In this document: positions 1 through 18,022 of the stretch, one piece after another | How positions within the stretch are numbered: the stretch's first letter is position 1 | Layout: each line of letters begins with the position of its first letter | Origin: Fibrobacter sp. | GTDB lineage: Bacteria; Fibrobacterota; Fibrobacteria; Fibrobacterales; Fibrobacteraceae | Reading direction: 5' to 3' | Assembly (NCBI GenBank): GCA_017412605.1 | Contig: JAFPWY010000001.1 | Location: 1-64,000, forward strand | Length of the DNA: 64,000 bases | The notes under the pieces: model-generated | What the model saw: the letters and a program-made list of their open reading frames with translations, nothing else | Databases searched by the model: none | What the model was told of the DNA's origin: nothing | Translations under genes and position numbers: made by a program

Positions 1-270
1 CTTGACGTAGTCGGCGTGCCCCGGGCAGTCGACGTGAGCGTAGTGACGGTTGGCAGTGGTGTATTCCACGTGCGAGGTGTTGATCGTGATACCACGGGCC
101 TTTTCTTCCGGAGCGTTGTCGATTTCGTCGAAACGCTTGGCGCTGGCGAGACCCTTAGCGGCGAGGGTCGTGCAGATTGCAGCGGTCAAAGTGGTTTTAC
201 CGTGGTCAACGTGGCCGATGGTGCCAATGTTGCAGTGCGGCTTGCTTCTGTCAAAATGTTCTTTTGCCAT
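1..270 (-). CDS. tuf: Elongation factor Tu, N-terminal part (cut by window edge)
   Basis: EF-Tu is the GTPase that carries aminoacyl-tRNA to the ribosomal A site in the cytoplasm. About 90 codons are visible, from an ATG at 268-270 to the window edge. They read as a textbook G domain: [20 protein letters not shown]-loop GHVDHGKT, switch [14 protein letters not shown], and G3 motif DCPGHADY. The remainder of the G domain and domains II-III lie outside the window. An A/G-rich stretch just upstream of the ATG could serve as ribosome binding site. This canonical copy is the useful comparison for the degenerate EF-Tu paralogue at 10044-11120. Confidence 0.97.
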
Positions 271-7264: not shown

Positions 7265-7726
7265 CTAATTTGCAGGAACTTTTTTAAGGTCGGGATCGCT
7301 AGGCTTTTCCATATAGATTTCTTTCATAATCTTAAAGAGCTCGGGGTACATAGATTCATAAATGGCATAAGATCGATACTTCTTTTTGAAGTAAAGAACC
7401 TTTTTCCCAAATCGATCCCTCCCGCATTTCTGTAATTCACTCTTATCGAAAGTAAATTCTATTGTTTTTCCCAAAAGAAAGAATGTAAATGCCTTTTCGT
7501 TTTTTTCAACCTTATACGGCAGTCCCCAAAAAAGATAGACCCCAACAGCAACCCAAAACGTCAAAAAAAGAACGAAAGGAGTTATATCAAAAAAACCGTC
7601 TTTGCCGTTTAAACTCCCCAAAACAAAAACGCTAAACAGAAGGTATGTATCTATAATCGAACAAATTAATAAAGCACCAGCTCTTATTGCATATACAACA
7701 TTAGCTTTGTATGTTACTTGTTCCAT
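7265..7726 (-). CDS. Small two-helix membrane protein of unknown function
   Basis: 153 aa, not recognised. Two hydrophobic stretches (about residues 10-35 and 48-70) predict two membrane helices; the rest is polar and Lys-rich (about 75-153), probably cytoplasmic. The ATG follows AGGATT at suitable distance. Base composition is visibly more AT-rich than the neighbouring metabolic genes, which suggests an accessory or transferred gene. It faces ahcY across a bidirectional terminator. Confidence 0.7.
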   Translation of the reverse strand: MEQVTYKANVVYAIRAGALLICSIIDTYLLFSVFVLGSLNGKDGFFDITPFVLFLTFWVAVGVYLFWGLPYKVEKNEKAFTFFLLGKTIEFTFDKSELQKCGRDRFGKKVLYFKKKYRSYAIYESMYPELFKIMKEIYMEKPSDPDLKKVPAN

Positions 7727-7845
7727 CAGATTAATCCTAATTAACTTTTCCCTAATTCTAATTTATATTGATAAATATAATCATTCATACCAGAAATGCG
7801 TTGATTCTGCGCCGATACCGGCAGCAAAAATTATTTCCCTTCACA

Positions 7846-7925
7846 TTATGGTATTGACAATCTGTAGCCGATTGAGATGCCCATCCAAGGTTTGATACTG
7901 TTACCACCAAAAAAATATTTTGCTT
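7846..7925 (-). pseudogene. Possible remnant of an outer-membrane protein C-terminus
   Basis: On the minus strand a short open tail translates as KYFFGGNSIKPWMGISIGY then RLSIP and stop. The aromatic, alternating pattern is typical of a last beta-barrel strand. Upstream stops interrupt the frame within a few codons and no start is present. It may be a decayed gene end; chance similarity cannot be excluded. Confidence 0.3.
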
Positions 7926-7991
7926 TTTATACTCATCCAATTTAAACATTGTTTTCTCTCTCTTATCTGGCCTTCTTTCTAGAACATCTCA

Positions 7992-8936
7992 TTACGGGAG
8001 CAATTCCATAAGGCACTTGGCAAAGCTTTCCGTATCGTCGTTATTGATACGTACCGCCTTGCCGTTATTGACTTCCATGGAGTTCCTATACTCGATCTTG
8101 CAAAGCTCTTCCGGCACCGAACTCGCATAGAGATACTCGTAGGTGCAAGTGGAACCGTTCGCTTCTACGGTCGCCTTGTAGGACGAATAAAGGATATCAC
8201 GGCTGTCATACACGATATCCGAGAATCGGATCGAGACAGTCTGATCGTATGCCGAGATGGTTTCGGAGGTTTTCGTCTTTTCTATAACCGATATTCCGTA
8301 TAATTCGATATCGGACGCGACATGATCGCCACCCTTGGTAAACAGGAACTCGCCATAGGCATTACTCAAATGATCAAACTTGTAATGCGAGAAAAGTTCG
8401 TCATAAATCCACGCCACCATCTGCGTCTCCATATAATCCCATGAATCAAAGGTGTCGTTCTCGATGGACATGCAGTTTTCAGCAATGTTGAAATAGTCGT
8501 TCGAGGAATCTTCTTCACTTTCTTCGTCTTTTACGATGGCACCATCGACAAAATTGTATCCCGACAGCACCTTCCACCGCGCCAGGGGATTTCCGTTCTT
8601 GCCGCCCACCATCACAATTTCCTTAAAGCCATCGCCGCGTGCTTTAATAATCAACGTGTCACCGACGAACTGGTAGTCGTAAACAAGGTCCTGGGCAATT
8701 CCTACGCTCGCAAATGTGGGAACAGGGCCCTGCACATCACATTCTGTCCGGTATTTTATGTGATGTAGCGTAATCGTGTTTTGGTTCCTGTCAATCTCGC
8801 TCGCATAGGCATCCCCTTTGCAGGCTCCACCAACCGCACTAGAACCCTTTTGGGAATCATTCGCCGAAGACGAATCATCGCCACAAGCCAGAAGGAACAA
8901 GCTGCAAACTACAAACAAAAAATTCAATAAACGCAT
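7992..8936 (-). CDS. Lipoprotein of the three-member paralogous family (member 1)
   Basis: 314 aa. Signal peptide and lipobox LLACGDD, then a short Ser-rich linker. The body resembles the two lipoproteins at 15708 and 16845: shared features include a YxFxxDTLxIxxxxxG stretch, a VGGxxGNxxxxW motif, a single 'xxFMxSL'-like helix in the middle and a C-terminal FxxCIxxI/FAKCLMEL ending. Function is unknown; probably displayed on the inner or outer membrane. RBS AAGGA precedes the ATG. Identity between members is only moderate, so the duplications are old. Confidence 0.8.
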   Translation of the reverse strand: MRLLNFLFVVCSLFLLACGDDSSSANDSQKGSSAVGGACKGDAYASEIDRNQNTITLHHIKYRTECDVQGPVPTFASVGIAQDLVYDYQFVGDTLIIKARGDGFKEIVMVGGKNGNPLARWKVLSGYNFVDGAIVKDEESEEDSSNDYFNIAENCMSIENDTFDSWDYMETQMVAWIYDELFSHYKFDHLSNAYGEFLFTKGGDHVASDIELYGISVIEKTKTSETISAYDQTVSIRFSDIVYDSRDILYSSYKATVEANGSTCTYEYLYASSVPEELCKIEYRNSMEVNNGKAVRINNDDTESFAKCLMELLP

Positions 8937-9005
8937 ATAGTTATCCTTGAAAAGGTTTTATGCGTCCAAAAATAGATAATGCGTCTAGATTTTTAGAGGT
9001 GCCCT

Positions 9006-9206
9006 TTACCTATTCCACCCGGAATGCCCTTCGCCGTAATAAACGGAGGCATCCTCGGGTCCAAAGTCATCCGGCCCCGAATCGCGTGGCGAAAGCCATC
9101 CGCGCATTTTCTTGATGCGAGCACGACGTTCTGCAGCAGCTTTGTCAGCGGCGCTGTCTGCAGTCTTGTCGGAAGCAACTTGCTCTTTGTTCGGTGTATC
9201 TGTCAT
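9006..9206 (-). CDS. Small hydrophilic protein of unknown function
   Basis: 66 aa (MTDTPNKEQVASDKTADSAA...). A strong AGGAGG seven bases before the ATG supports expression. The N-terminal half is Ala/Lys/Asp-rich and likely helical (KAAAERRARIKKMRGW); the C-terminal half is Gly/Asp/Pro-rich and ends GYxGxxHSGWNR-like (YYGEGHSGWNR). There is no signal peptide or membrane segment. Not recognised. Confidence 0.65.
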   Translation of the reverse strand: MTDTPNKEQVASDKTADSAADKAAAERRARIKKMRGWLSPRDSGPDDFGPEDASVYYGEGHSGWNR

Positions 9207-9397
9207 GCATCTACCTCCTGTAAGAAGGTCTAATCCCCTATGCTGTCTAAAAATAATTTTTTTTGTTTAATGAGAGTGACGGTATTGCAATTAATTCGTC
9301 ATTTTTGTTAATCCCGTTGTTTCAAAAAAAGCGATTTCCTAATTTGCCCTTCACAGAAAAATCATCTGTGATAAAATAGGAACAAAGGAAATTGAAA

Positions 9398-9889
9398 ATG
9401 AAAAAGATTATTTTAATTCTCACCTTTTTGACTTGCGCAAGTTTCGCACAAACCGGAGTTTTTGTAGCTACCGGTAGAGCATACCACGGAATGGTCGGTG
9501 TAGAACAAACGTTCTTGAACGAACATCTGTCCGTGAACCTCCATTGGCTCGGCTACGATTCCGACTACGATTTCATGGGCGGTCTGGGTGTTGCTTACCG
9601 TTTTAAGGGATTGACCGGCCCGTACGTATTCCACTCCTCTGATTGGCTTGCCGGCCGAGTATCTGATCACAATAAGGATGAATATAATAGATTCAACTAC
9701 TGGCGCTTGGTCTTCGGTTTCGGTTTGCAACATATGTTCACAAAGCACTTTGGCGTCTTCATGGAAACGGGCTTTGAATTCTACGCAGGTGAAGGCGGCT
9801 ACTACACATACCTCGACATAGACGATGGTGGACTCAACAATGACACCATCTTTTTCCCCGTGGCCTTCGGCTTGACGGTACAGTTTTAG
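9398..9889 (+). CDS. Small outer-membrane beta-barrel protein
   Basis: 163 aa. The signal peptide MKKIILILTFLTCASFAQ is followed by alternating aromatic/small residues and a last strand ending VAFGLTVQF, typical of a small barrel. The ATG at 9398 has AAAGGA at 8 nt; an in-frame TTG at 9392 is too close to the RBS. It resembles a group of small barrels in this window (e.g. 13290) in size only. Function unknown. Confidence 0.75.
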   Translation: MKKIILILTFLTCASFAQTGVFVATGRAYHGMVGVEQTFLNEHLSVNLHWLGYDSDYDFMGGLGVAYRFKGLTGPYVFHSSDWLAGRVSDHNKDEYNRFNYWRLVFGFGLQHMFTKHFGVFMETGFEFYAGEGGYYTYLDIDDGGLNNDTIFFPVAFGLTVQF

Positions 9890-9926: not shown

Positions 9927-9955
9927 AGGGCTCCATGCGGAGCCCTATTGTCATT
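9927..9955 (+). terminator. Probable terminator after 9398 gene
   Basis: Perfect stem AGGGCTCC-ATGC-GGAGCCCT, followed after a few bases by ATTTTT. The T run is short. Confidence 0.6.
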
Positions 9956-10043
9956 TTTAGATAAAATAAATTTACACAATACATTTTATTTAATTTTGTA
10001 TATAATATCGTGCACAAACGCTTACCCCAACAAGGAGAAAATA

Positions 10044-11120
10044 ATGCCAAAAACTCATTGCTCACTCGGGCTCATTGCCAATGATGAACAAACCAACAAC
10101 AACTTATTCCAGGCAATCAGCAAAGTCTGCTCGAGCACCTCGACGCCACAGCCGTCGTTTGAAACTGCCAGTCGTAAATACACCCTATTTAACTTAATCG
10201 CTGATGTCGACTTTATAAACTATTCTATATCGACAGATGCCTTTGTCCTCATCATGGATGCGACCAAAAGACCAACAAAAAAAGTGCTGGATTTTCTCTC
10301 ACTTGCCGCAGAAATGAAAGTCTCCAACATTATTGTTTTTTTGGACAATTGCGATACAATCAACGACGCAGAGAAGCTCCAACTTATTGATATGGAAATC
10401 CGTCAACTGTTCTACGAAAACAAACTTGACGATAAGAATATGCCAATTATCTGCGGTTCCTTGAGCAAAGCTCTCGAAGGCCAACAGACATGGCTGGCCA
10501 AAATTACAGAATTCGTCAATGCCTGCGACAAATACATCCAGCCTCCTTTCTTCAAAGATAAGCCTCTCTTTATGCCGATCGAAGACGTCTTCGAAATCTC
10601 TGGCCGTGGCACTGTCGCTACTGGACGCGTCCTACGCGGCACACTGCATTTAAACGATAAAGTTGCATGCGTCGGACATGGCAAAAATGACGAATACTTC
10701 GTTACTGCTATAGAACAGTTCCGCAAGGACATTGACGAGGCCCTGCCGGGCGACAGTGTTGGTGTCCTTCTTCGTGGTGCACAAAGGAAAGACCTTGCAC
10801 GTGGTATGGTCATCGCCACTCCTAATTCCGTCAGTGAACACACCGAATTCAAGGCCAAAATTACCACCCTTACGAAAGATGAAGGCGGACGCCACTCACC
10901 GTTCTTTAACAACTACCGTCCTCAGATTTACTTTTTCACTGACGGTGTAACTGGAACCCTAGAGTTCCCCCCTGAAGTGAATATGGTATTCCCGGGAGAC
11001 GCTTTAACTGCTATCGTGAAACTGAGCGAGCCCTTCGTATTGGAAGCAGGAACCCCATTCGCGGTTCGCGAAGGCGGTCGAACCGTCGGCAAAGGCGTTG
11101 TTATCCAAATAATCAAATAA
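10044..11120 (+). CDS. Degenerate EF-Tu paralogue lacking all GTPase motifs
   Basis: 358 aa. The ATG at 10044 follows AAGGAG; the frame open from 9948 is not needed. It aligns with EF-Tu along its whole length. Residues 3-25 match EF-Tu's P-loop region without gaps, but the loop itself is replaced (GHVDHGKTT becomes ANDEQTNNN; Asn18 in place of the catalytic Lys). Switch I is deleted, which accounts for most of the 36-residue shortfall. DCPGHADY becomes ADVDFINY (the catalytic His is Phe57), and NKCD becomes DNCD. In contrast, domains II-III (about 170-358) are well kept: SGRGTVATGRV, GGRHSPFF, VREGGRTVG. It therefore cannot bind GTP in the usual way but may still bind EF-Tu partners such as tRNA or other factors. 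A TATAAT box is at 10001-10006. Possible roles are a regulator, decoy or chaperone; none is shown by sequence. Confidence 0.9.
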   Translation: MPKTHCSLGLIANDEQTNNNLFQAISKVCSSTSTPQPSFETASRKYTLFNLIADVDFINYSISTDAFVLIMDATKRPTKKVLDFLSLAAEMKVSNIIVFLDNCDTINDAEKLQLIDMEIRQLFYENKLDDKNMPIICGSLSKALEGQQTWLAKITEFVNACDKYIQPPFFKDKPLFMPIEDVFEISGRGTVATGRVLRGTLHLNDKVACVGHGKNDEYFVTAIEQFRKDIDEALPGDSVGVLLRGAQRKDLARGMVIATPNSVSEHTEFKAKITTLTKDEGGRHSPFFNNYRPQIYFFTDGVTGTLEFPPEVNMVFPGDALTAIVKLSEPFVLEAGTPFAVREGGRTVGKGVVIQIIK

Positions 11121-11129
11121 ATCAAGAAA

Positions 11130-11158
11130 AAGAGGCTATATTTCAAATATGGCCTCTT
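11130..11158. promoter_or_regulatory. Palindrome embracing -10 box and start codon of the next gene
   Basis: AAGAGGCTATATTT / AAATATGGCCTCTT forms a 14-bp stem (one G-U pair) with a single central base. The TATATTTC box (11137-11144) and the ATG (11149) lie inside it. It could end the EF-Tu-like transcript and start the next one, although a T run is missing. Confidence 0.5.
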
Positions 11159-12333
11159 CATTGCACCTCTTGCAAAGTACACTCCCCGCACTCCTGTGGG
11201 GAGGTTTTGTGCTTGCTGCCGGGCCGTTTGCCGGTGAAGTTCATGCCGCGGGAGTTGCAGGCGTGTTCGATGCCGGCTGGACAACTGCCTACCAGTCGCA
11301 GGATTCCATCACGCACATGCATCAGCGCTTGCACGCGCTCGGAATGGACGAAGTTGTTTTACAATATGCCGCCGTCGAGGCGACGCACTTGTACTACCCT
11401 TCGCAACTGGACTTTTTGCAGAATACGCAATACAAGAACAACGAGCTTTTCCCCAAGAGCATCGAGGCGGCAAAAGCCGCAAGCACAAGAATTTGGCTCG
11501 GGCTCTACTACAATGGTGAAAACTGGTACACCCCGCCGACTGCCGAGCAGCTTGACACGCTAACATCAAGGAACCAGAAGGTACTTGAAGAAGTCCATTC
11601 GCTATACGGGAACGAGGGCGTCATTGAGGGCGTGTATATTCCACAAGAAATTGCACGTTACTACTGGGACGGCCTGCGCGATGACGCAACTCCGGAAATG
11701 CTCACGGAACACTTTTTGAAGCCGGTCACCGAAGCTGCACAGGCGAAGGGCTGGAAGGTGATGGCGGCCCCGTTCTACAACCAGAACCTGGAAACGCCCG
11801 AGAAGTTGCAATCATTTTTCGAAAAGCTCTTTGCCGCAGGATTCAAGCCCGACATTATCGCTGTGCAGGACGGTGTCGGCGCAAGTGACGCGGGCAAAGC
11901 CCATGCCGAAACCGCGACCGTGGGCAACTACGAACGCTCGGTGGCTGACGCATGCAAGCAATACGGGATAGAATTCTGGATCGACATGGAACTGTTCCGC
12001 ACCGACAATTCACAAGCACTCGCAGACAGCGCAAGAATCTCGGCACAGCTCGATACCGCATACGCCGCAGGTGCCGTGAAAGTCATCGGCTACGATTTGG
12101 CCGTCCTCGGGAACGCGGGCCTCGATTCCCTCGAGAAATGGAAGCTGGAATCGAGCGTAGAGCCGACAACCAGAATTGTACACCGCAAAAATCGCGAGAC
12201 CCGCCGCGCATCCAACGCCCGCGACAAAAAAACGCAGAAACGCGAGCTGTTCCTGAACGGACGTTTACAGAACAACCGCCCACTTGACGAGAATTCGCAA
12301 TACTTCAAGACGAACGGCGCCCAAGTCAAGTAA
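11149..12333 (+). CDS. Secreted DUF4434-like TIM-barrel protein
   Basis: 394 aa. The N-terminal hydrophobic segment (residues 8-33, ending HAAG) looks like a signal peptide. The body (about 40-340) resembles DUF4434-type, glycoside-hydrolase-like barrels: FDAGWTTAYQSQ, VVLQYAAVE, IWLGLYYNG, IEGVYIPQEI, VMAAPFYNQ, IIAVQDGVGA and EFWIDMELF fit successive strands with acidic or aromatic ends. The tail is basic and Arg/Asn-rich (about 345-394). There is no Shine-Dalgarno: TATATTTC lies 5 nt before the ATG, suggesting a leaderless message. Its 3' end overlaps the convergent gene at 12326 by 8 nt. Substrate unknown. Confidence 0.65.
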   Translation: MASSLHLLQSTLPALLWGGFVLAAGPFAGEVHAAGVAGVFDAGWTTAYQSQDSITHMHQRLHALGMDEVVLQYAAVEATHLYYPSQLDFLQNTQYKNNELFPKSIEAAKAASTRIWLGLYYNGENWYTPPTAEQLDTLTSRNQKVLEEVHSLYGNEGVIEGVYIPQEIARYYWDGLRDDATPEMLTEHFLKPVTEAAQAKGWKVMAAPFYNQNLETPEKLQSFFEKLFAAGFKPDIIAVQDGVGASDAGKAHAETATVGNYERSVADACKQYGIEFWIDMELFRTDNSQALADSARISAQLDTAYAAGAVKVIGYDLAVLGNAGLDSLEKWKLESSVEPTTRIVHRKNRETRRASNARDKKTQKRELFLNGRLQNNRPLDENSQYFKTNGAQVK

Positions 12334-13150
12334 GTGTTTTTCTCCTGAAGAACAACTTCTTCAACTTCTGGAAATAGAACTTGGTTTCTTCCACATTAAC
12401 GAAGAACGTGGCGACGCCCACCACAAAGAACATGTTGAAAACAAGCCCGACAATTGCATTGCCGATATAGAAGCCGCCAAACATATGCTCGCGAACGTAT
12501 GCGAAATTGTTCCACAGAATCTGCACGAACGCAACCAGCGCATAGACTTTCAAGACGAGTGAATTCCTCTTGGCTATCGCAAAAATACCCACCGCAATCG
12601 AAACGACCACCAGCGCAATAGAAAACCAGGAAAGCGGCTGCACAAAGCCACTTGCAGTTTTCATAAAGTAGCTCAACAGAATCTTGAACAAATCATTCGC
12701 GCCATCGACAATAAAGATGACCGCACAGAAACGGAGCAAACCAAGGTTCAGGCCACTTTCTTCAACCACCGTCTTCTTCAAACCTATAAAGAACGTCGTG
12801 ATGCAAAGGACAAGGGAAGGGTCCACGAAATTATCGACGAACGCATTCAAAATCACACCGGTTTCCAAGCCCATCGACGAATAGGTATAAGGGATTATCA
12901 CGGCACCAAAAAGCCGCATCGCAATCGAAAGCACGGAGAGAATCATCAGAAAAATAGGAGTCTTTTTAACAAGCGAGGCAATACCCGCAGCAATGCCGAG
13001 CACACCCATCACAATTGAGCCAATATAGCCCGCCATGAGCGACTCGTCCGACATCCCGGCCGCAAGCAGCCGCAACAACAGCCCTGCAATAGTATTCAGC
13101 CCGCTCACGATAAACAAGGCGGAGCAAACACGAAGTAACGATTGGTTCAT
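12326..13150 (-). CDS. Multi-pass membrane protein of unknown function
   Basis: 274 aa, mostly hydrophobic, with about seven to eight predicted membrane helices beginning at residue 8. The two halves look weakly similar (LRVCSALFIVSGLNTIAGLL and LRFCAVIFIVDGANDLFKIL), suggesting an internal duplication. A strong AAGGAGT precedes the ATG. The C-terminus is basic. No transporter signature was recognised. Confidence 0.7.
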   Translation of the reverse strand: MNQSLLRVCSALFIVSGLNTIAGLLLRLLAAGMSDESLMAGYIGSIVMGVLGIAAGIASLVKKTPIFLMILSVLSIAMRLFGAVIIPYTYSSMGLETGVILNAFVDNFVDPSLVLCITTFFIGLKKTVVEESGLNLGLLRFCAVIFIVDGANDLFKILLSYFMKTASGFVQPLSWFSIALVVVSIAVGIFAIAKRNSLVLKVYALVAFVQILWNNFAYVREHMFGGFYIGNAIVGLVFNMFFVVGVATFFVNVEETKFYFQKLKKLFFRRKTLT

Positions 13151-13289
13151 AAGCGGGACTCCTTTTGAACATAAACGTAATAAAAAACGGCCCGGATTTT
13201 ATTCCGGGTCGTATTTTATGGACTAAAATTTACACGTCATTTTTATATTACTTTGAAATCAGGGATTATATATTTACCTTGTAGCTTAT

Positions 13290-13841
13290 ATGAAAAAGGC
13301 CTTCCTCCTCATCATCGCTTTTGCGGGATCCCTGCACGCATCTATCTTCGTTGATTCACGGGTGTTATTTACGCTTTTTACACAACCCGTGCTGAATCTC
13401 GACATTGATAAAACAATTGTACATAACGGGGCCTTGGTCGTTTCTCCGGAATTATCACGGGCACATTACCTTACGGAAGACGGAACCTGGACAGCAGCCT
13501 CTTTAGGGATCGGTTACCGTCAATACTTAACATTCAAAGATGGTCAAATGATTTCGGACCACCTCACCAAAAATTCTTTTTCATTGTTCGGCGGAATTCA
13601 CGCTTTCCCCACCTACCTTTACGTAAGCAGAAACCACAAGGACTACTTCTCGATTGCGCCTGAATTCAGAACCGGTGTACTGAAAGTTTTCAAGACCATG
13701 TTCCAGGCGTCTCTCGGAATAGGCTACAACTTCACCGATTACAACGAAGCGCATCCCTGGAAAAACGCTACCCCGAACACCGCATTTGCCCACGGATTTT
13801 ACTACCGTATCAATTTCTGCATAGGCGGCGGCAATTTTTAA
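13290..13841 (+). CDS. Small outer-membrane protein of unknown function
   Basis: 183 aa. Signal peptide MKKAFLLIIAFAGSLHAS, then beta-strand-like alternation with a C-terminal strand ending GFYYRINFCIGGGNF. No family recognised. A TATATTTA box lies at 13269-13276, about 13 nt before the ATG, and no clear Shine-Dalgarno is present. Confidence 0.68.
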   Translation: MKKAFLLIIAFAGSLHASIFVDSRVLFTLFTQPVLNLDIDKTIVHNGALVVSPELSRAHYLTEDGTWTAASLGIGYRQYLTFKDGQMISDHLTKNSFSLFGGIHAFPTYLYVSRNHKDYFSIAPEFRTGVLKVFKTMFQASLGIGYNFTDYNEAHPWKNATPNTAFAHGFYYRINFCIGGGNF

Positions 13842-13844
13842 CCT

Positions 13845-13879
13845 TCAAAAAATACCCCCGGCCGTCATGGTCGGGGGTA
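13845..13879. terminator. Terminator between convergent 13290 gene and lysC
   Basis: An 8-bp arm TACCCCCG / CGGGGGTA encloses an 11-nt loop; A6 on its left gives a T run for the minus strand, so it mainly fits lysC. Confidence 0.75.
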
Positions 13880-13915
13880 ATAAGCTAGATCCTTCGTGGC
13901 TTCGCCACTCGCGGA

Positions 13916-15238
13916 TTACTTCACAAACGCGCCGTAGATGGCCTTGATGGCCTTCTCGGTATCGGCATCGTCAACACCGGTGATGATGTTGATCTGCGAA
14001 GAACCCTGGTCGATGATGCGGACGTTCACCTTGTTCTCGGCGAGAGCGGTAAACAGCTTCGCGGCAACACCGATCTTGTTCGTCATGCCGTGACCCACGG
14101 TAGCGATGAGCGCGATACCCGGGAACACCTTGATACGGTCGGGGCGCATCTGCTGCGTGATGTCTTCGAGAACCACGTCCTGCACGGCGTCGAGGGCCTT
14201 GGAATCCACGACGATGCTCATGGAGTCGATAGCGCTCGGGCACAGTTCGTAGGAGAGGCCTTCGCTTTCGAGCACGGCGAGCACGCGGCGACCGAAACCG
14301 ACTTCCTTGTTCATCATGGACTTCTCGATGTAGATCATGGAGAAGCCCTTGCGGCCGGCAACGCCCGTAATCGGGAGCTTTGCTTCTTCCGGAGTGGGGC
14401 CGATGATGGTGCCAGCGTCTTCGGGGCGGTTCGTGTTGCGGATGTTGATAGGAATCTTCTTCGCGCGGCACGGAGCGATGGATTCGTCGTGGAGCACGCT
14501 TGCGCCGGAGTAGGCGAGTTCGCGGATTTCGCGGTAGCTCACGTATTCAATGGGCAGCGGATTTTCGACGATGCGCGGGTCTGCCATGAGCATGCCCGAG
14601 ACGTCGGTCCAGTTTTCGTACTTGGCGGCATCGATGCCGTTAGCGAGGATTGCGCCCGTAATGTCGGAGCCGCCACGGCTGAAGGTCTTGACTTCGCCAC
14701 GGAGGTTTGCACCATAGAAGCCCGGCAGCACGTAGAGCTGGTTCTCGTCGGAGAGCGTCTTCGCGATGTCTTCGTAGGTTTTCGGGACAATGCGGTACTT
14801 GTCGTCGAACGTGATCAGCGGGAAGGTGTCGACGAAGTTTGCGCCCAGGTACTTGGCCATGAGGCGTGCGCAGAGGAATTCGCCACGGCTCACGAGGAAG
14901 TCCGTGCTCACGGATTCGGGCTGGTTCTTCAGCTTGTCTTCGAGGCTGTCGAGGTCTTCGGTCAGCTTGTCTTCGAGACCCAGGTCCTTGCAGATTTCGT
15001 CATAGCGCTGACGGATCAGGTTCCACGGCGTCGAAAAGTCGAGGCCCTTGGAGGCGAGGTCGTAGGTGCTGTAGAGGAGGTCGGTAAGCTTCGTCTCTTT
15101 GGGATTGCGCTTGCCGGGGGCGGAAACGACGATGACCTTGCGGTTCTTGTCGGATTCAACGATGGCCTTGATCTTCTTGAACTGGCCGGCATCGGCGACA
15201 GAGCTGCCGCCGAACTTGCATACGATTCTTTGACTCAT
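13916..15238 (-). CDS. lysC: Aspartate kinase
   Basis: 440 aa. Phosphorylates aspartate, the first step of the Lys/Met/Thr pathway. The ATG chosen (MSQRIVCKFGGSSVAD) follows AAAGGA; 14 upstream codons open in frame are ignored. Visible are the kinase signature VCKFGGSSVAD, the catalytic/substrate region (SRGEFLCARLMAKYLG, FSRGGSDITGA) and two C-terminal ACT-type segments (about 310-440) that usually bind feedback amino acids. It is the monofunctional form; no homoserine dehydrogenase domain follows. Product feeds homoserine, the precursor of MetY's substrate. Confidence 0.95.
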   Translation of the reverse strand: MSQRIVCKFGGSSVADAGQFKKIKAIVESDKNRKVIVVSAPGKRNPKETKLTDLLYSTYDLASKGLDFSTPWNLIRQRYDEICKDLGLEDKLTEDLDSLEDKLKNQPESVSTDFLVSRGEFLCARLMAKYLGANFVDTFPLITFDDKYRIVPKTYEDIAKTLSDENQLYVLPGFYGANLRGEVKTFSRGGSDITGAILANGIDAAKYENWTDVSGMLMADPRIVENPLPIEYVSYREIRELAYSGASVLHDESIAPCRAKKIPINIRNTNRPEDAGTIIGPTPEEAKLPITGVAGRKGFSMIYIEKSMMNKEVGFGRRVLAVLESEGLSYELCPSAIDSMSIVVDSKALDAVQDVVLEDITQQMRPDRIKVFPGIALIATVGHGMTNKIGVAAKLFTALAENKVNVRIIDQGSSQINIITGVDDADTEKAIKAIYGAFVK

Positions 15239-15707
15239 TTTTTCCTTTCGGGCCACCAAACCTCTCAGCTTCGAGCGCAATCGCTTTCCTCGCGACCGTC
15301 GTGCCCAAGCCTACCCATCTGGCCAGCCACTTTGGTTTCCGGCGCCCACTAAAAAATCATTTTCAGAAATTTGGCTGCGACTCTTCGTGCAGTTTCGTCA
15401 CTCAAAGTGGTAAAGACTTCCAGTATTCACCACTTTTCGTTCCTGCCTGCACTCGGTCTCGCCAAAATTTCCACTTCAAAGCATTTTTTAGCGGTCGCCT
15501 TATGGTGTCTATGTCTGCGACGGCATTTTACCGCCGCGCGGGGGCAAATTTAGAAAAATGAGGGAAATGCGGCAAGGTTTTTAGCTCCCCGACATGCCCA
15601 AATCGGGACGGATTGGCAAAGCTCCTGCACAAATTGTCATGTATTCTTATGCACTTTAGATAGTTTTATGTTATATTAACAAAAAAAAGATTTAAAAGGA
15701 TTTTTCC
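15239..15707. other. Gene-free region upstream of lysC and the lipoprotein pair
   Basis: No supported gene. The lysC leader on the minus strand was compared with the lysine riboswitch consensus and does not match. A minus-strand open stretch of about 25 codons (roughly 15360-15435) reads like protein (TTLSDETARRVAAKFLKMIF) but has no ATG and stops before lysC. The right end is AT-rich; TATATT at 15672-15677 may belong to the promoter of the lipoprotein at 15708. Confidence 0.5.
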
Positions 15708-16805
15708 ATGAAAAAGGCCCTGTTCGCCATTGCAATTTCACTCGCCTTTGCCGCCTGCGGCGACGACAGCTCTTCCAATGCCAATGACAATTCCTCCACC
15801 GTCATTGACACACCAACCGAAAGCGACAGTTCTTCTGTGGGCAAAAACACGTCCACCGCTGACAGCAATTCCTCTGGCATTGAGAAAGTCATCTCGAAAA
15901 ACGGCGATATCACAATCAATGCTTCGCACAGTATTCTTGTCGATGAAGAGAACCACATTCTGACAATAACTGCCGACGAGAAAAATGCTGATTTGTGCGT
16001 GAAGGATGGCGATACTTATACTTGGAAACCGATGCCGATTTACAAGATCCCTGATTCCGTCAAGTACGAATTCCATAACGACACCCTGATGTTCTTCAAT
16101 ATCCGCAACGGGGAAATAGATAAAAGCGCAGAAGTCCTTGTTGGCGGCGCACCGGGAAATATCTATTCCAAATGGACCTTTACAGGATGCCTGTACTATG
16201 CCGAAACCAAGGAATTAAAATGGTGCGAAGACGACTATACCTACATGCAAGTTTACTTTACGATATCGGAAGATCGCTTTGTCTCTAGCATCTTATGGCA
16301 CTGGGAAAAATATATTACGGACAAGAGCAATTATATAAACTCCGCCTTCATGGAAAGCCTGTACAGTAATTTAAGCGGAATCGATGCGGACATCTACGGT
16401 GCCCTTATCTTTTCCCCAAAAACTTCTTTCGAGGGCGACACCATAGATCACAACACCATTAAAATCATAAATATGAACTCAAAGTCCAAAGATTTTGAAT
16501 TGGGCGGCAAAAAATTTACGGTCGAGATACTCCAAGCCGATTTAAATCTGATCCAAACAGGCTACGACAGGGGTTCCGTAAATATGGAAGTCCAGGTGGA
16601 AGTAACGGACGGCAAAACGACGTGCAATCTTGCCTATCAAAAAAAATACCTGGATGAATCCTTGTGCAAGGCCGAAAATGCAGAATTTTTTAACACCGCT
16701 GATTGGAAAGACGATGATGGCAATGAATTCATCCATGCATACAACTTTGAAAAAAGCAATAACGCCGAATTCAAAAGTTGCATTCAAAGCATCGCCGTTC
16801 AGTAA
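15708..16805 (+). CDS. Lipoprotein of the three-member paralogous family (member 2)
   Basis: 365 aa. Signal and lipobox LAFAACGDDSSS, Ser-rich linker to about residue 65, then a soluble domain. Shared with its neighbour at 16845: YTWKPMPIY versus YTWKTVHIT, KYEFHNDTLMFFNIRNG versus MYEFRNDTLILYDIYNG, VGGAPGNIYSKWTFTGC versus VGGTAGNLYGTWTYTGC, and the ending FKSCIQSIA versus FKQCITGIA. The paired Cys in those motifs may be disulfide bonded in the periplasm. RBS AAAAGGA. Function unknown. Confidence 0.82.
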   Translation: MKKALFAIAISLAFAACGDDSSSNANDNSSTVIDTPTESDSSSVGKNTSTADSNSSGIEKVISKNGDITINASHSILVDEENHILTITADEKNADLCVKDGDTYTWKPMPIYKIPDSVKYEFHNDTLMFFNIRNGEIDKSAEVLVGGAPGNIYSKWTFTGCLYYAETKELKWCEDDYTYMQVYFTISEDRFVSSILWHWEKYITDKSNYINSAFMESLYSNLSGIDADIYGALIFSPKTSFEGDTIDHNTIKIINMNSKSKDFELGGKKFTVEILQADLNLIQTGYDRGSVNMEVQVEVTDGKTTCNLAYQKKYLDESLCKAENAEFFNTADWKDDDGNEFIHAYNFEKSNNAEFKSCIQSIAVQ

Positions 16806-16844
16806 GAACCCTCCCCATTCTAAAAGCTATCCAGATATTCTATC

Positions 16845-17942
16845 ATGAAAAAATTTTTGTTCGCCGTTGCAATTTCACTTGCGCTTATCGCCTGCGGGGA
16901 TGATTCCTCTTCCAACGCAAATAACGGATCTGGCAAGTCCATAGGAGACGATGCCTTTTCATGGACAGTAGCGCTTTACGTCAACGAATCGGAACATATG
17001 CTGATAATGGGGCTTGAAGACTACGAAACCATGATGTGCGTCGTAGAAGAGCAAGGCTATACTTGGAAAACCGTACACATCACTGAAGAGCCGGATCCCA
17101 TGATGTACGAATTCCGTAACGACACGCTGATACTCTACGATATTTACAATGGCCAGCCAGAATTAGATGACGGTGACATACTGGTCGGCGGCACTGCGGG
17201 GAACCTCTATGGTACATGGACATACACCGGATGCGATTATAACAAGAATAATAACACGACTACATGCCATGAAAAGACCCTACGGTACACACTCCGCACC
17301 ATAACCTTCTCCAATGGAAAGGCCGAAATCTACTACAAGGTCTACTACGACCACTACTTAGAACACAACAGCGACTTCATGAATTCCTATTTCATGTCGT
17401 CACTCATCCGCACGCTCAACGGCAACTATCCCGAAGCCTACCTGTCCGATATCTGGCTCATGGATTCCTCGAGCGTGCAAGCCGCAACAGAAAAGGATAG
17501 AGTGGTATTTACATCAAAGACCAAGACAAGCGCCACCTTCGTGCTGGGCGACAAAACATATTCCGTCAACGTGATGCATGTGGATATGAACCTGAACCGC
17601 GAAGGTTTCTATGTCGCAAACGAGAACAGGGATGTCCAAGTGGAAGTGAGCGACGGCATTACAACCTGTACGGGCGAGTACTTCTCCCACTACATGAATG
17701 CCGACTACTGCAAGGTAGAATACAAAGACAACCTCAGCACGTATGAAAAAAATTACTCCAATGGCGAGCAGTTTATCGAGGCAGAAAAGTACAACCGCAG
17801 CAACGAAGAAGAATTCAAGCAGTGCATCACGGGTATCGCATACAAGAAGTACGACCCTCTTGATGGGTACTCCGCCCCCGAAGTCGCAAAAAAACTCAAG
17901 AAATATCGGAAAAAGCAGTTGCGTCCTTATAGCTTATTGTAA
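16845..17942 (+). CDS. Lipoprotein of the three-member paralogous family (member 3)
   Basis: 365 aa, the same length as the gene 39 nt upstream, from which it probably arose by tandem duplication. Lipobox LALIACGDDSSS. The linker after the lipobox is much shorter than in member 2 and the C-terminus has a basic extension of about 30 residues (APEVAKKLKKYRKK). No Shine-Dalgarno is evident; GATATTCTATC precedes the ATG. The AAA+ activator at 18023 follows after 80 nt and may be cotranscribed. Confidence 0.8.
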   Translation: MKKFLFAVAISLALIACGDDSSSNANNGSGKSIGDDAFSWTVALYVNESEHMLIMGLEDYETMMCVVEEQGYTWKTVHITEEPDPMMYEFRNDTLILYDIYNGQPELDDGDILVGGTAGNLYGTWTYTGCDYNKNNNTTTCHEKTLRYTLRTITFSNGKAEIYYKVYYDHYLEHNSDFMNSYFMSSLIRTLNGNYPEAYLSDIWLMDSSSVQAATEKDRVVFTSKTKTSATFVLGDKTYSVNVMHVDMNLNREGFYVANENRDVQVEVSDGITTCTGEYFSHYMNADYCKVEYKDNLSTYEKNYSNGEQFIEAEKYNRSNEEEFKQCITGIAYKKYDPLDGYSAPEVAKKLKKYRKKQLRPYSLL

Positions 17943-18022
17943 AAATTCCAATGCGAATGTAAAAAACATAATTTTTTTGGGATAAATTTCCCGATAAAAA
18001 CGTCATATAACTGAAAAGCTAT

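What the first reader, a model, noticed from the sequence alone, without database searches (positions are those of the whole stretch)
10044..11120. EF-Tu paralogue that has lost all GTP-binding motifs but kept domains II and III
Seen: 358 codons aligning with EF-Tu end to end. The N-terminal 23 residues align ungapped with [18 protein letters not shown], but the P-loop reads ANDEQTNNN, switch I is deleted, DCPGHADY is ADVDFINY and NKCD is DNCD. Domains II-III keep SGRGTVATGRV, GGRHSPFF and VREGGRTVG. Known: these GTPase motifs are essential for canonical EF-Tu, whose loss of P-loop Lys abolishes nucleotide binding. Inference: an intact, selected reading frame with one half conserved and the other half drifted suggests a pseudo-GTPase with a new role (translation regulator, EF-Ts or tRNA binder, or decoy for EF-Tu-targeting toxins). 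It has its own promoter and RBS and lies 10 kb from canonical tuf.
Basis: partly seen in the sequence, partly recalled or inferred. Interest (0 to 1): 0.85.

Follow-up and report, generated by a model that had tools for sequence, protein, structure and literature searches.

The report
EF-Tu relative without GTP site
This gut-type bacterium (Fibrobacter-like) carries a spare copy of the protein-synthesis factor EF-Tu that has lost its GTP-binding site but kept the face that grips transfer RNA, and it belongs to a family of remodelled EF-Tu copies found so far only in this genus.

Summary
ORF 10044-11120 (358 aa) is an EF-Tu homologue with no recognisable G1-G3 motifs, a deleted switch I, DNCD for NKCD, and good domains II-III. 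No orthologue was found in 80 genomes of the genus, 168 of the phylum, or a pattern scan of 84,980 GTDB species. It is not an isolated oddity, however. At least nine other genomes of the genus carry EF-Tu variants: EF-Tu with an extra fused domain II-III, double EF-Tu, domain II-III alone, and other copies with eroded GTP motifs. They nest inside the genus's own EF-Tu clade, P0001 among them (support 100/99). Related variants evolve fast but under purifying selection (dN/dS 0.25-0.41), and P0001's open frame is very unlikely under neutrality. P0001 keeps 20/21 tRNA-contact residues of domains II-III, against 62/96 other conserved sites there (p=0.004) and 41/145 in the G domain. Best reading: a nucleotide-independent tRNA-acceptor-binding protein that modulates translation. 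A decoy for EF-Tu-targeting toxins is the main rival, because such toxins dock in the same pocket; recent decay of this one copy is not excluded. The closest precedent is archaeal aSelBL. No function is shown experimentally.

The parts
10044..11120 (+). P0001, pseudo-GTPase EF-Tu paralogue, 358 aa
   Evidence: AF2 model pLDDT 85.7, EF-Tu fold in PDB search
10044..10553 (+). degenerate G domain (residues 1-170): G1, G2/switch I, G3, G4 and G5 lost or altered; 41/145 sites invariant in EF-Tu kept
10554..11117 (+). domains II-III (residues 171-358): 62% identical to the genus's canonical EF-Tu; 20/21 tRNA-contact residues kept
10032..10037 (+). AAGGAG ribosome-binding site
   Evidence: sequence
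10001..10006 (+). TATAAT, possible -10 element; no -35 above threshold
   Evidence: sequence; scan
9927..9946 (.). terminator-like hairpin that separates the gene from the upstream ORF
11130..11158 (.). 13-bp hairpin after the stop codon (-16 kcal/mol), terminator-like
1..270 (-). first 90 codons of canonical tuf, cut by the contig end

Best explanation
P0001 is a real protein-coding gene and the most eroded stand-alone member of a genus-specific clade of EF-Tu paralogues. Its G domain keeps the fold but can no longer bind GTP in the normal way (inferred from motif loss). It has kept the domain II pocket for the tRNA 3' end, the 5'-phosphate arginine and the domain III T-stem contacts. The most likely mechanism is nucleotide-independent binding of tRNA or aminoacyl-tRNA: a holder, buffer or competitor of canonical EF-Tu that is not released by GTP hydrolysis, and so tunes translation or protects tRNA under particular conditions. 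Shown by computation: homology, motif loss, open frame, clade membership, constraint in sister paralogues, selective retention of tRNA-contact residues. Inferred: expression, absence of nucleotide binding, tRNA binding, physiological role.
For: Clade: P0001 lies with seven other variant EF-Tu units at 100/99 support; placing it with canonical EF-Tu is disfavoured, AU p=0.044. All eight have a changed G3 motif, and P0001, the G012/G087 pair and G090 have also lost the P-loop. Constraint: paralogue pairs have dN/dS 0.25-0.41 at dS 0.23-1.45, against mostly <0.11 for neighbouring genes. Neutral simulation of P0001 expects 9.5 stop codons and gives none in 0.03% of runs; differences from canonical by codon position are 0.36/0.27/0.56. 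tRNA face: 20/21 contact residues kept against 62/96 other invariant D2-D3 sites, Fisher p=0.004, and 20/21 against 39/59 with a stricter invariant set, p=0.009. The six D2-D3 residues named in PMC9071432 in connection with aa-tRNA (F218, E259, R262, R288, R318, H319) are all present. Fused or free second D2-D3 units keep only 5-12 of 21. Fold: confident EF-Tu-like model.
Against: G-domain tRNA contacts (H66, K89, N90) and switch I are lost, and canonical EF-Tu needs the GTP form for tight aa-tRNA binding. The contact list beyond the six named residues comes from general knowledge. The closed, GTP-like model is not diagnostic: canonical EF-Tu modelled the same way is also closed. No orthologue exists to measure selection on P0001 itself. 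GC3 is low, third lowest of 46 window genes, which argues against high expression. No translation-linked gene neighbour was found.
Confidence: 0.42

Rival explanations
1. Decoy or sponge: P0001 imitates the domain II surface of EF-Tu and titrates EF-Tu-dependent toxins or EF-Tu-modifying enzymes delivered by competitors, without taking part in translation.
For: CdiA-CT EC869 docks on EF-Tu domain II through F218/E259 with EF-Tu in an open form without bound GDP (PMC9071432), and P0001 keeps these residues. The family is patchy, fast-evolving and variable in architecture, as expected in an arms race.
Against: Domain III T-stem residues are also kept, which domain II docking does not need. dN/dS is below 1 in all paralogue pairs. 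No defence family matched P0001 or the neighbours tested. Low codon bias does not suit an abundant sponge.
Confidence: 0.2
2. Decaying copy: P0001 is a freed tuf paralogue drifting towards a pseudogene.
For: Singleton: no orthologue in the genus, phylum or GTDB scans, absent from the syntenic site in eight relatives. Very long branch (1.9), low GC3, and codon-position differences of 0.47/0.44/0.60 in the first 62 codons, close to neutral.
Against: Intact 358-codon frame with RBS and flanking hairpins; neutral simulation gives stop-free frames in 0.03% of runs (0.27% for the G domain alone); second codon positions are conserved in D2-D3; selective retention of one functional surface.
Confidence: 0.15
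3. Regulatory partner binder: P0001 binds EF-Ts, the L7/L12 stalk or another EF-Tu partner rather than tRNA.
For: Helix D, the EF-Ts and L7/L12 contact in EF-Tu (general knowledge), is among the better-kept G-domain stretches (G4 plus helix D 11/23 identical; L148 and E152 kept).
Against: L145 is replaced by Lys; G-domain invariant sites are kept in only 41/145 cases overall; this does not explain retention of the tRNA face.
Confidence: 0.12
4. Accessory or cargo of a contractile injection system: EF-Tu-derived modules in this genus serve the eCIS.
For: In G012, G087 and G030 a cluster of EF-Tu variants sits directly upstream of an eCIS operon on the same strand. Paralogue carriers hold the eCIS more often (6/10 against 13/70, p=0.01).
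Against: The three cases share one syntenic site, so they are probably one event. Other eCIS loci read in the genus have no EF-Tu gene beside them, and P0001's own genome gave no match to the eCIS sheath (the tube-family search had no positive control).
Confidence: 0.05

Closest known systems
aSelBL, archaeal SelB-like proteins with disrupted G domains (PMC3037878; M. mazei structure 2ELF)
   Same: An EF1-family factor whose G motifs are disrupted to varying degree while domains II-III and the tRNA-contact sites are conserved; GTP-independent aa-tRNA handling has been proposed there.
   Different: aSelBL derives from archaeal SelB and is old and broad. The present family derives from EF-Tu within one bacterial genus, carries extra D2-D3 units, and exists beside intact EF-Tu.
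actEF-Tu2 / tuf3 of actinomycetes (PMC4342817)
   Same: A divergent second EF-Tu in a bacterium; starvation-linked induction is reported for actEF-Tu2.
   Different: From general knowledge, EF-Tu3 is a working GTPase (antibiotic-resistant form); P0001 lacks G1-G3.
Canonical EF-Tu (TIGR00485)
   Same: Fold, domain order, tRNA-contact residues of domains II-III.
   Different: No GTP-binding motifs, switch I deleted, score below the curated cut-off.
Bacteroides EF-G2, an EF-G paralogue reported to work without GTPase activity (from memory; paper not read here)
   Same: GTPase-free paralogue of an elongation factor in a gut bacterium of the FCB group.
   Different: EF-G, not EF-Tu; a different step of translation.

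Membership tests
Canonical EF-Tu | G1-G5 GTP-binding motifs | tested here: not met
   P-loop ANDEQTNN, DCPGH -> NLIAD, NKCD -> DNCD, SAL -> SLS, switch I deleted
Canonical EF-Tu | score above the EF-Tu equivalog cut-off (TIGR00485, 522.4 bits) | tested here: not met
   328.7 bits
Canonical EF-Tu | domains II and III | tested here: met
   Pfam PF03144 and PF03143 above gathering score; fold
Canonical EF-Tu | aa-tRNA contact residues | tested here: inconclusive
   20/21 kept in D2-D3, but G-domain contacts H66, K89 and N90 lost
Canonical EF-Tu | GTP/GDP binding and hydrolysis | not testable with these tools
   needs purified protein
Genus-specific variant EF-Tu clade | nests inside the genus's EF-Tu and groups with other variants | tested here: met
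   100/99 support; AU against placement with canonical p=0.044; long branch noted
Genus-specific variant EF-Tu clade | altered G3 motif | tested here: met
   all eight units of the clade, P0001 included
aSelBL | descent from archaeal SelB | tested here: not met
   P0001 is inside bacterial EF-Tu of its genus; NCBIfam EF-Tu 4e-98 against SelB 4e-20
aSelBL | disrupted G domain with conserved tRNA-contact sites in domains II-III | tested here: met
   definition from PMC3037878
eCIS component | gene lies in or beside an eCIS operon, genome holds one | tested here: not met
   no eCIS sheath match in the own genome; the same query matches 19 other genomes of the genus
Anti-phage defence protein | match to a PADLOC model | tested here: not met
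   no match for P0001 or the neighbours tested

The most novel reading that the evidence does not exclude
One bacterial genus repeatedly duplicates EF-Tu, switches off GTP binding in several copies independently and adds or recombines domain II-III units, yielding a family of GTP-free tRNA-binding factors (or EF-Tu mimics) of which P0001 is the barest full-length form: a bacterial, convergent counterpart of archaeal aSelBL.
Probability: 0.42. Interest if true: 0.8.

Novelty: new variant of a known kind. Interest (0 to 1): 0.62.

Why it matters
EF-Tu is among the most constrained and abundant bacterial proteins, and bacterial relatives of it without a GTP site are not described in the papers found here. 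A family in which the GTP switch was lost several times while the tRNA face was kept would let one ask directly what the switch is needed for, and whether tRNA can be held or withheld from translation without GTP. If the decoy rival is right, it would instead show bacterial EF-Tu mimicry against competitors' toxins.

Tried and rejected
A 575-aa ORF with dN/dS of 2 beside the G012/G087 cluster looked like positive selection but is antisense to the eCIS sheath gene, hence an artefact of my first ORF choice. eCIS association as the function of the family was rejected as a general rule. The closed, GTP-like model of P0001 looked like evidence for a locked-on state, but a control model of canonical EF-Tu is also closed. 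Anti-phage defence: no PADLOC match. Viral origin: no relative in viral contigs. The D2-D3-only tree groups P0001 with the second units and free D2-D3 proteins (99/97), while the full-length tree puts it with variant first units; long branches make its exact sister unclear. Some outgroup and canonical rows in the first full-length trees were read in the wrong frame; they were corrected or dropped and the tree was rebuilt.

Full report
Observation. The frame at window 10044-11120 (+) encodes 358 aa and is unmistakably EF-Tu-derived: TIGR00485 E=4e-98 at 328.7 bits, below the curated 522.4; Pfam D2 and D3 well above gathering score; the G-domain model matches only residues 54-166; PDB EF-Tu chains down to 8e-94. 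Aligned with E. coli and the genus's own EF-Tu, the P-loop GHVDHGKT reads ANDEQTNN, switch I is deleted, DCPGH reads NLIAD, NKCD reads DNCD, SAL reads SLS. The gene has an AAGGAG Shine-Dalgarno and is flanked by two strong hairpins, so it is probably monocistronic. A sigma-70 consensus promoter was not found; a lone TATAAT lies at 10001-10006. The 'canonical tuf 10 kb away' is the first 90 codons of tuf at window 1-270 (minus), cut by the contig end.

Distribution of P0001 itself. The window is contig C2:1-64000 of a 3.5-Mb, 15-contig genome. A search with its G domain in 80 genomes of the genus, with the full protein in 168 genomes of the phylum, and a pattern scan of 84,980 GTDB species found no orthologue; viral contigs also gave none. 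The next gene, DUF4434, is present in 44 of the 80 genus genomes, but in eight relatives examined nothing like P0001 stands beside it. P0001 is therefore species- or strain-level.

A family around it. The same genome carries a second EF-Tu variant at the end of contig C4: an EF-Tu with intact G motifs as far as read, fused to an extra, divergent domain II-III. Across the genus there are more: EF-Tu plus D2-D3 (G017 586 aa, G030); EF-Tu plus a second, degenerate EF-Tu lacking domain III (G097 675 aa, G068 678 aa); EF-Tu plus D2 (G095 482 aa, G090 462 aa); a stand-alone variant (G033 400 aa); and in G012 and G087 a three-gene cluster of D2-D3 alone, a pseudo-GTPase EF-Tu with extra D2-D3, and an EF-Tu with intact motifs. 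The G012/G087 and G090 copies have lost the P-loop and switch I as P0001 has, in different ways. In the phylum scan no comparable variant was seen outside the genus, though that scan listed best matches only.

Phylogeny. In a full-length ML tree all variants except one odd contig (G021) fall inside the genus's EF-Tu clade, so they arose by duplication there. P0001 is one of eight units in a clade with 100/99 support; forcing it into the canonical group is disfavoured (AU p=0.044). Its branch is very long (1.9), and the D2-D3-only tree puts it beside the second units and free D2-D3 proteins (99/97), so its exact sister is unsure. Every unit of the clade has an altered G3 motif; P-loop loss occurs in P0001, in the G012/G087 pair and in G090, whose apparent sister G095 is intact, so several independent losses are likely.

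Selection. For pairs of related variants dN/dS is 0.41 (G012/G087 pseudo-GTPase, and likewise the D2-D3 gene), 0.25 (G068/G097), 0.32 (G017/own C4) and 0.26 (G095/G090). Most neighbouring genes are below 0.11, though some reach 0.18-0.24. The second D2-D3 units are looser, 0.55-0.88. The variants thus evolve fast but are kept. For P0001, with no orthologue, two indirect tests exist: differences from canonical tuf by codon position are 0.36/0.27/0.56 (G domain 0.45/0.33/0.61), and neutral divergence of that size would leave 9.5 stop codons on average, none in only 0.03% of simulations. The first 62 codons look close to neutral (0.47/0.44/0.60).

Which surface is kept. Of sites identical between E. 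coli and all genus canonical EF-Tus used, P0001 keeps 41/145 in the G domain, 62/96 in D2-D3 outside the tRNA contacts, and 20/21 of the D2-D3 tRNA contacts (p=0.004); with a stricter set of invariant sites 20/21 against 39/59 (p=0.009). Most of the contact list is from general knowledge of EF-Tu-tRNA complexes; six of the residues (F218, E259, R262, R288, R318, H319) are named in connection with aa-tRNA in PMC9071432, and P0001 has all six. The G-domain contacts H66, K89 and N90 are lost. By contrast the second D2-D3 units keep 5-12 of 21, so they have probably left tRNA behind. For the other pseudo-GTPase copies the same excess of kept contacts is seen but is not significant on its own.

Structure. 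AlphaFold2 with the family alignment gives pLDDT 85.7, pTM 0.69 and an EF-Tu fold with a trimmed G domain. It is nearest to GTP-form structures (2c77 TM 0.83, 2c78 0.82, 1exm 0.78) rather than GDP forms (about 0.6), but canonical EF-Tu modelled in the same way is also closed, so this says only that the fold is kept.

Mechanism. Taken together, the tRNA-gripping face is maintained while the GTP switch is gone. I consider nucleotide-independent tRNA or aa-tRNA binding most likely (0.42). The strongest rival is a decoy for EF-Tu-dependent toxins, since a CdiA-CT toxin docks on the same domain II pocket of EF-Tu without bound nucleotide; the retained domain III contacts tilt against it. A decaying copy (0.15) and a partner-binding regulator (0.12) remain open.

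Known relatives. The nearest precedent is archaeal aSelBL: disrupted G motifs, conserved tRNA sites in domains II-III, proposed GTP-independent aa-tRNA handling (PMC3037878). The present family may work like it, but it is not a member: it descends from EF-Tu. Divergent bacterial EF-Tu paralogues are known in actinomycetes (actEF-Tu2, PMC4342817). In the passages of that survey of translational GTPases that mention Fibrobacter or EF-Tu paralogues, no EF-Tu variant of Fibrobacter appears, and the other literature searches found none; subscription papers are mostly not held. I therefore rate it a new variant of a known kind.

Side lead. In G012, G087 and G030 the EF-Tu variant cluster is directly followed by an eCIS operon (Pvc16, sheath, tubes, baseplate). 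Other eCIS loci read in the genus have no EF-Tu gene beside them and the window's genome gave no sheath match, so I treat it as one shared event, not as the function.

Noticed in passing
L047:7535-11453 followed by 11788-18001; L049 likewise; L054 end with L108 start: A cluster of EF-Tu variants (D2-D3 alone, pseudo or intact EF-Tu with extra D2-D3, EF-Tu) stands directly upstream of an extracellular contractile injection system operon in G012, G087 and G030, at the same syntenic site after an aryl-polyene-like gene cluster.
   Followed up: partly
L109:4827-10409 (minus), G071: A 1860-aa ORF begins with an EF-Tu-like N-terminus (MAKENFDKNK), then EF-Tu domain III (residues 28-137), a proline run and a large unknown region; its neighbours are a 1357-aa ORF and a DUF6603 protein. 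EF-Tu pieces seem to have been recruited into a giant protein.
   Followed up: no
G000:C4:52822-54505 (L007:6822-8504): The window's genome has an EF-Tu with intact G motifs as far as read, fused to a second divergent domain II-III; the contig ends inside its 5' part, possibly because it shares sequence with tuf.
   Followed up: partly
L046:7081-9117 and L048:6740-8767: Double EF-Tu proteins (675-678 aa) next to ffh; the second copy is a degenerate G domain plus domain II, and is followed by a TIGR02147/DUF4423 protein and two fast-diverging unknown genes.
   Followed up: partly
window 7265-9889: Genes just upstream of P0001 (7265-7726, 7992-8936, 9392-9889) have no Pfam or NCBIfam family and no match beside the syntenic DUF4434 gene of eight relatives; GC3 of 7265-7726 is the lowest in the window, so P0001 may sit in a variable island.
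   Followed up: partly
L053:5285-6478 (G021): An ordinary-looking EF-Tu that branches outside the genus clade; possibly a contaminant contig in that assembly.
   Followed up: no
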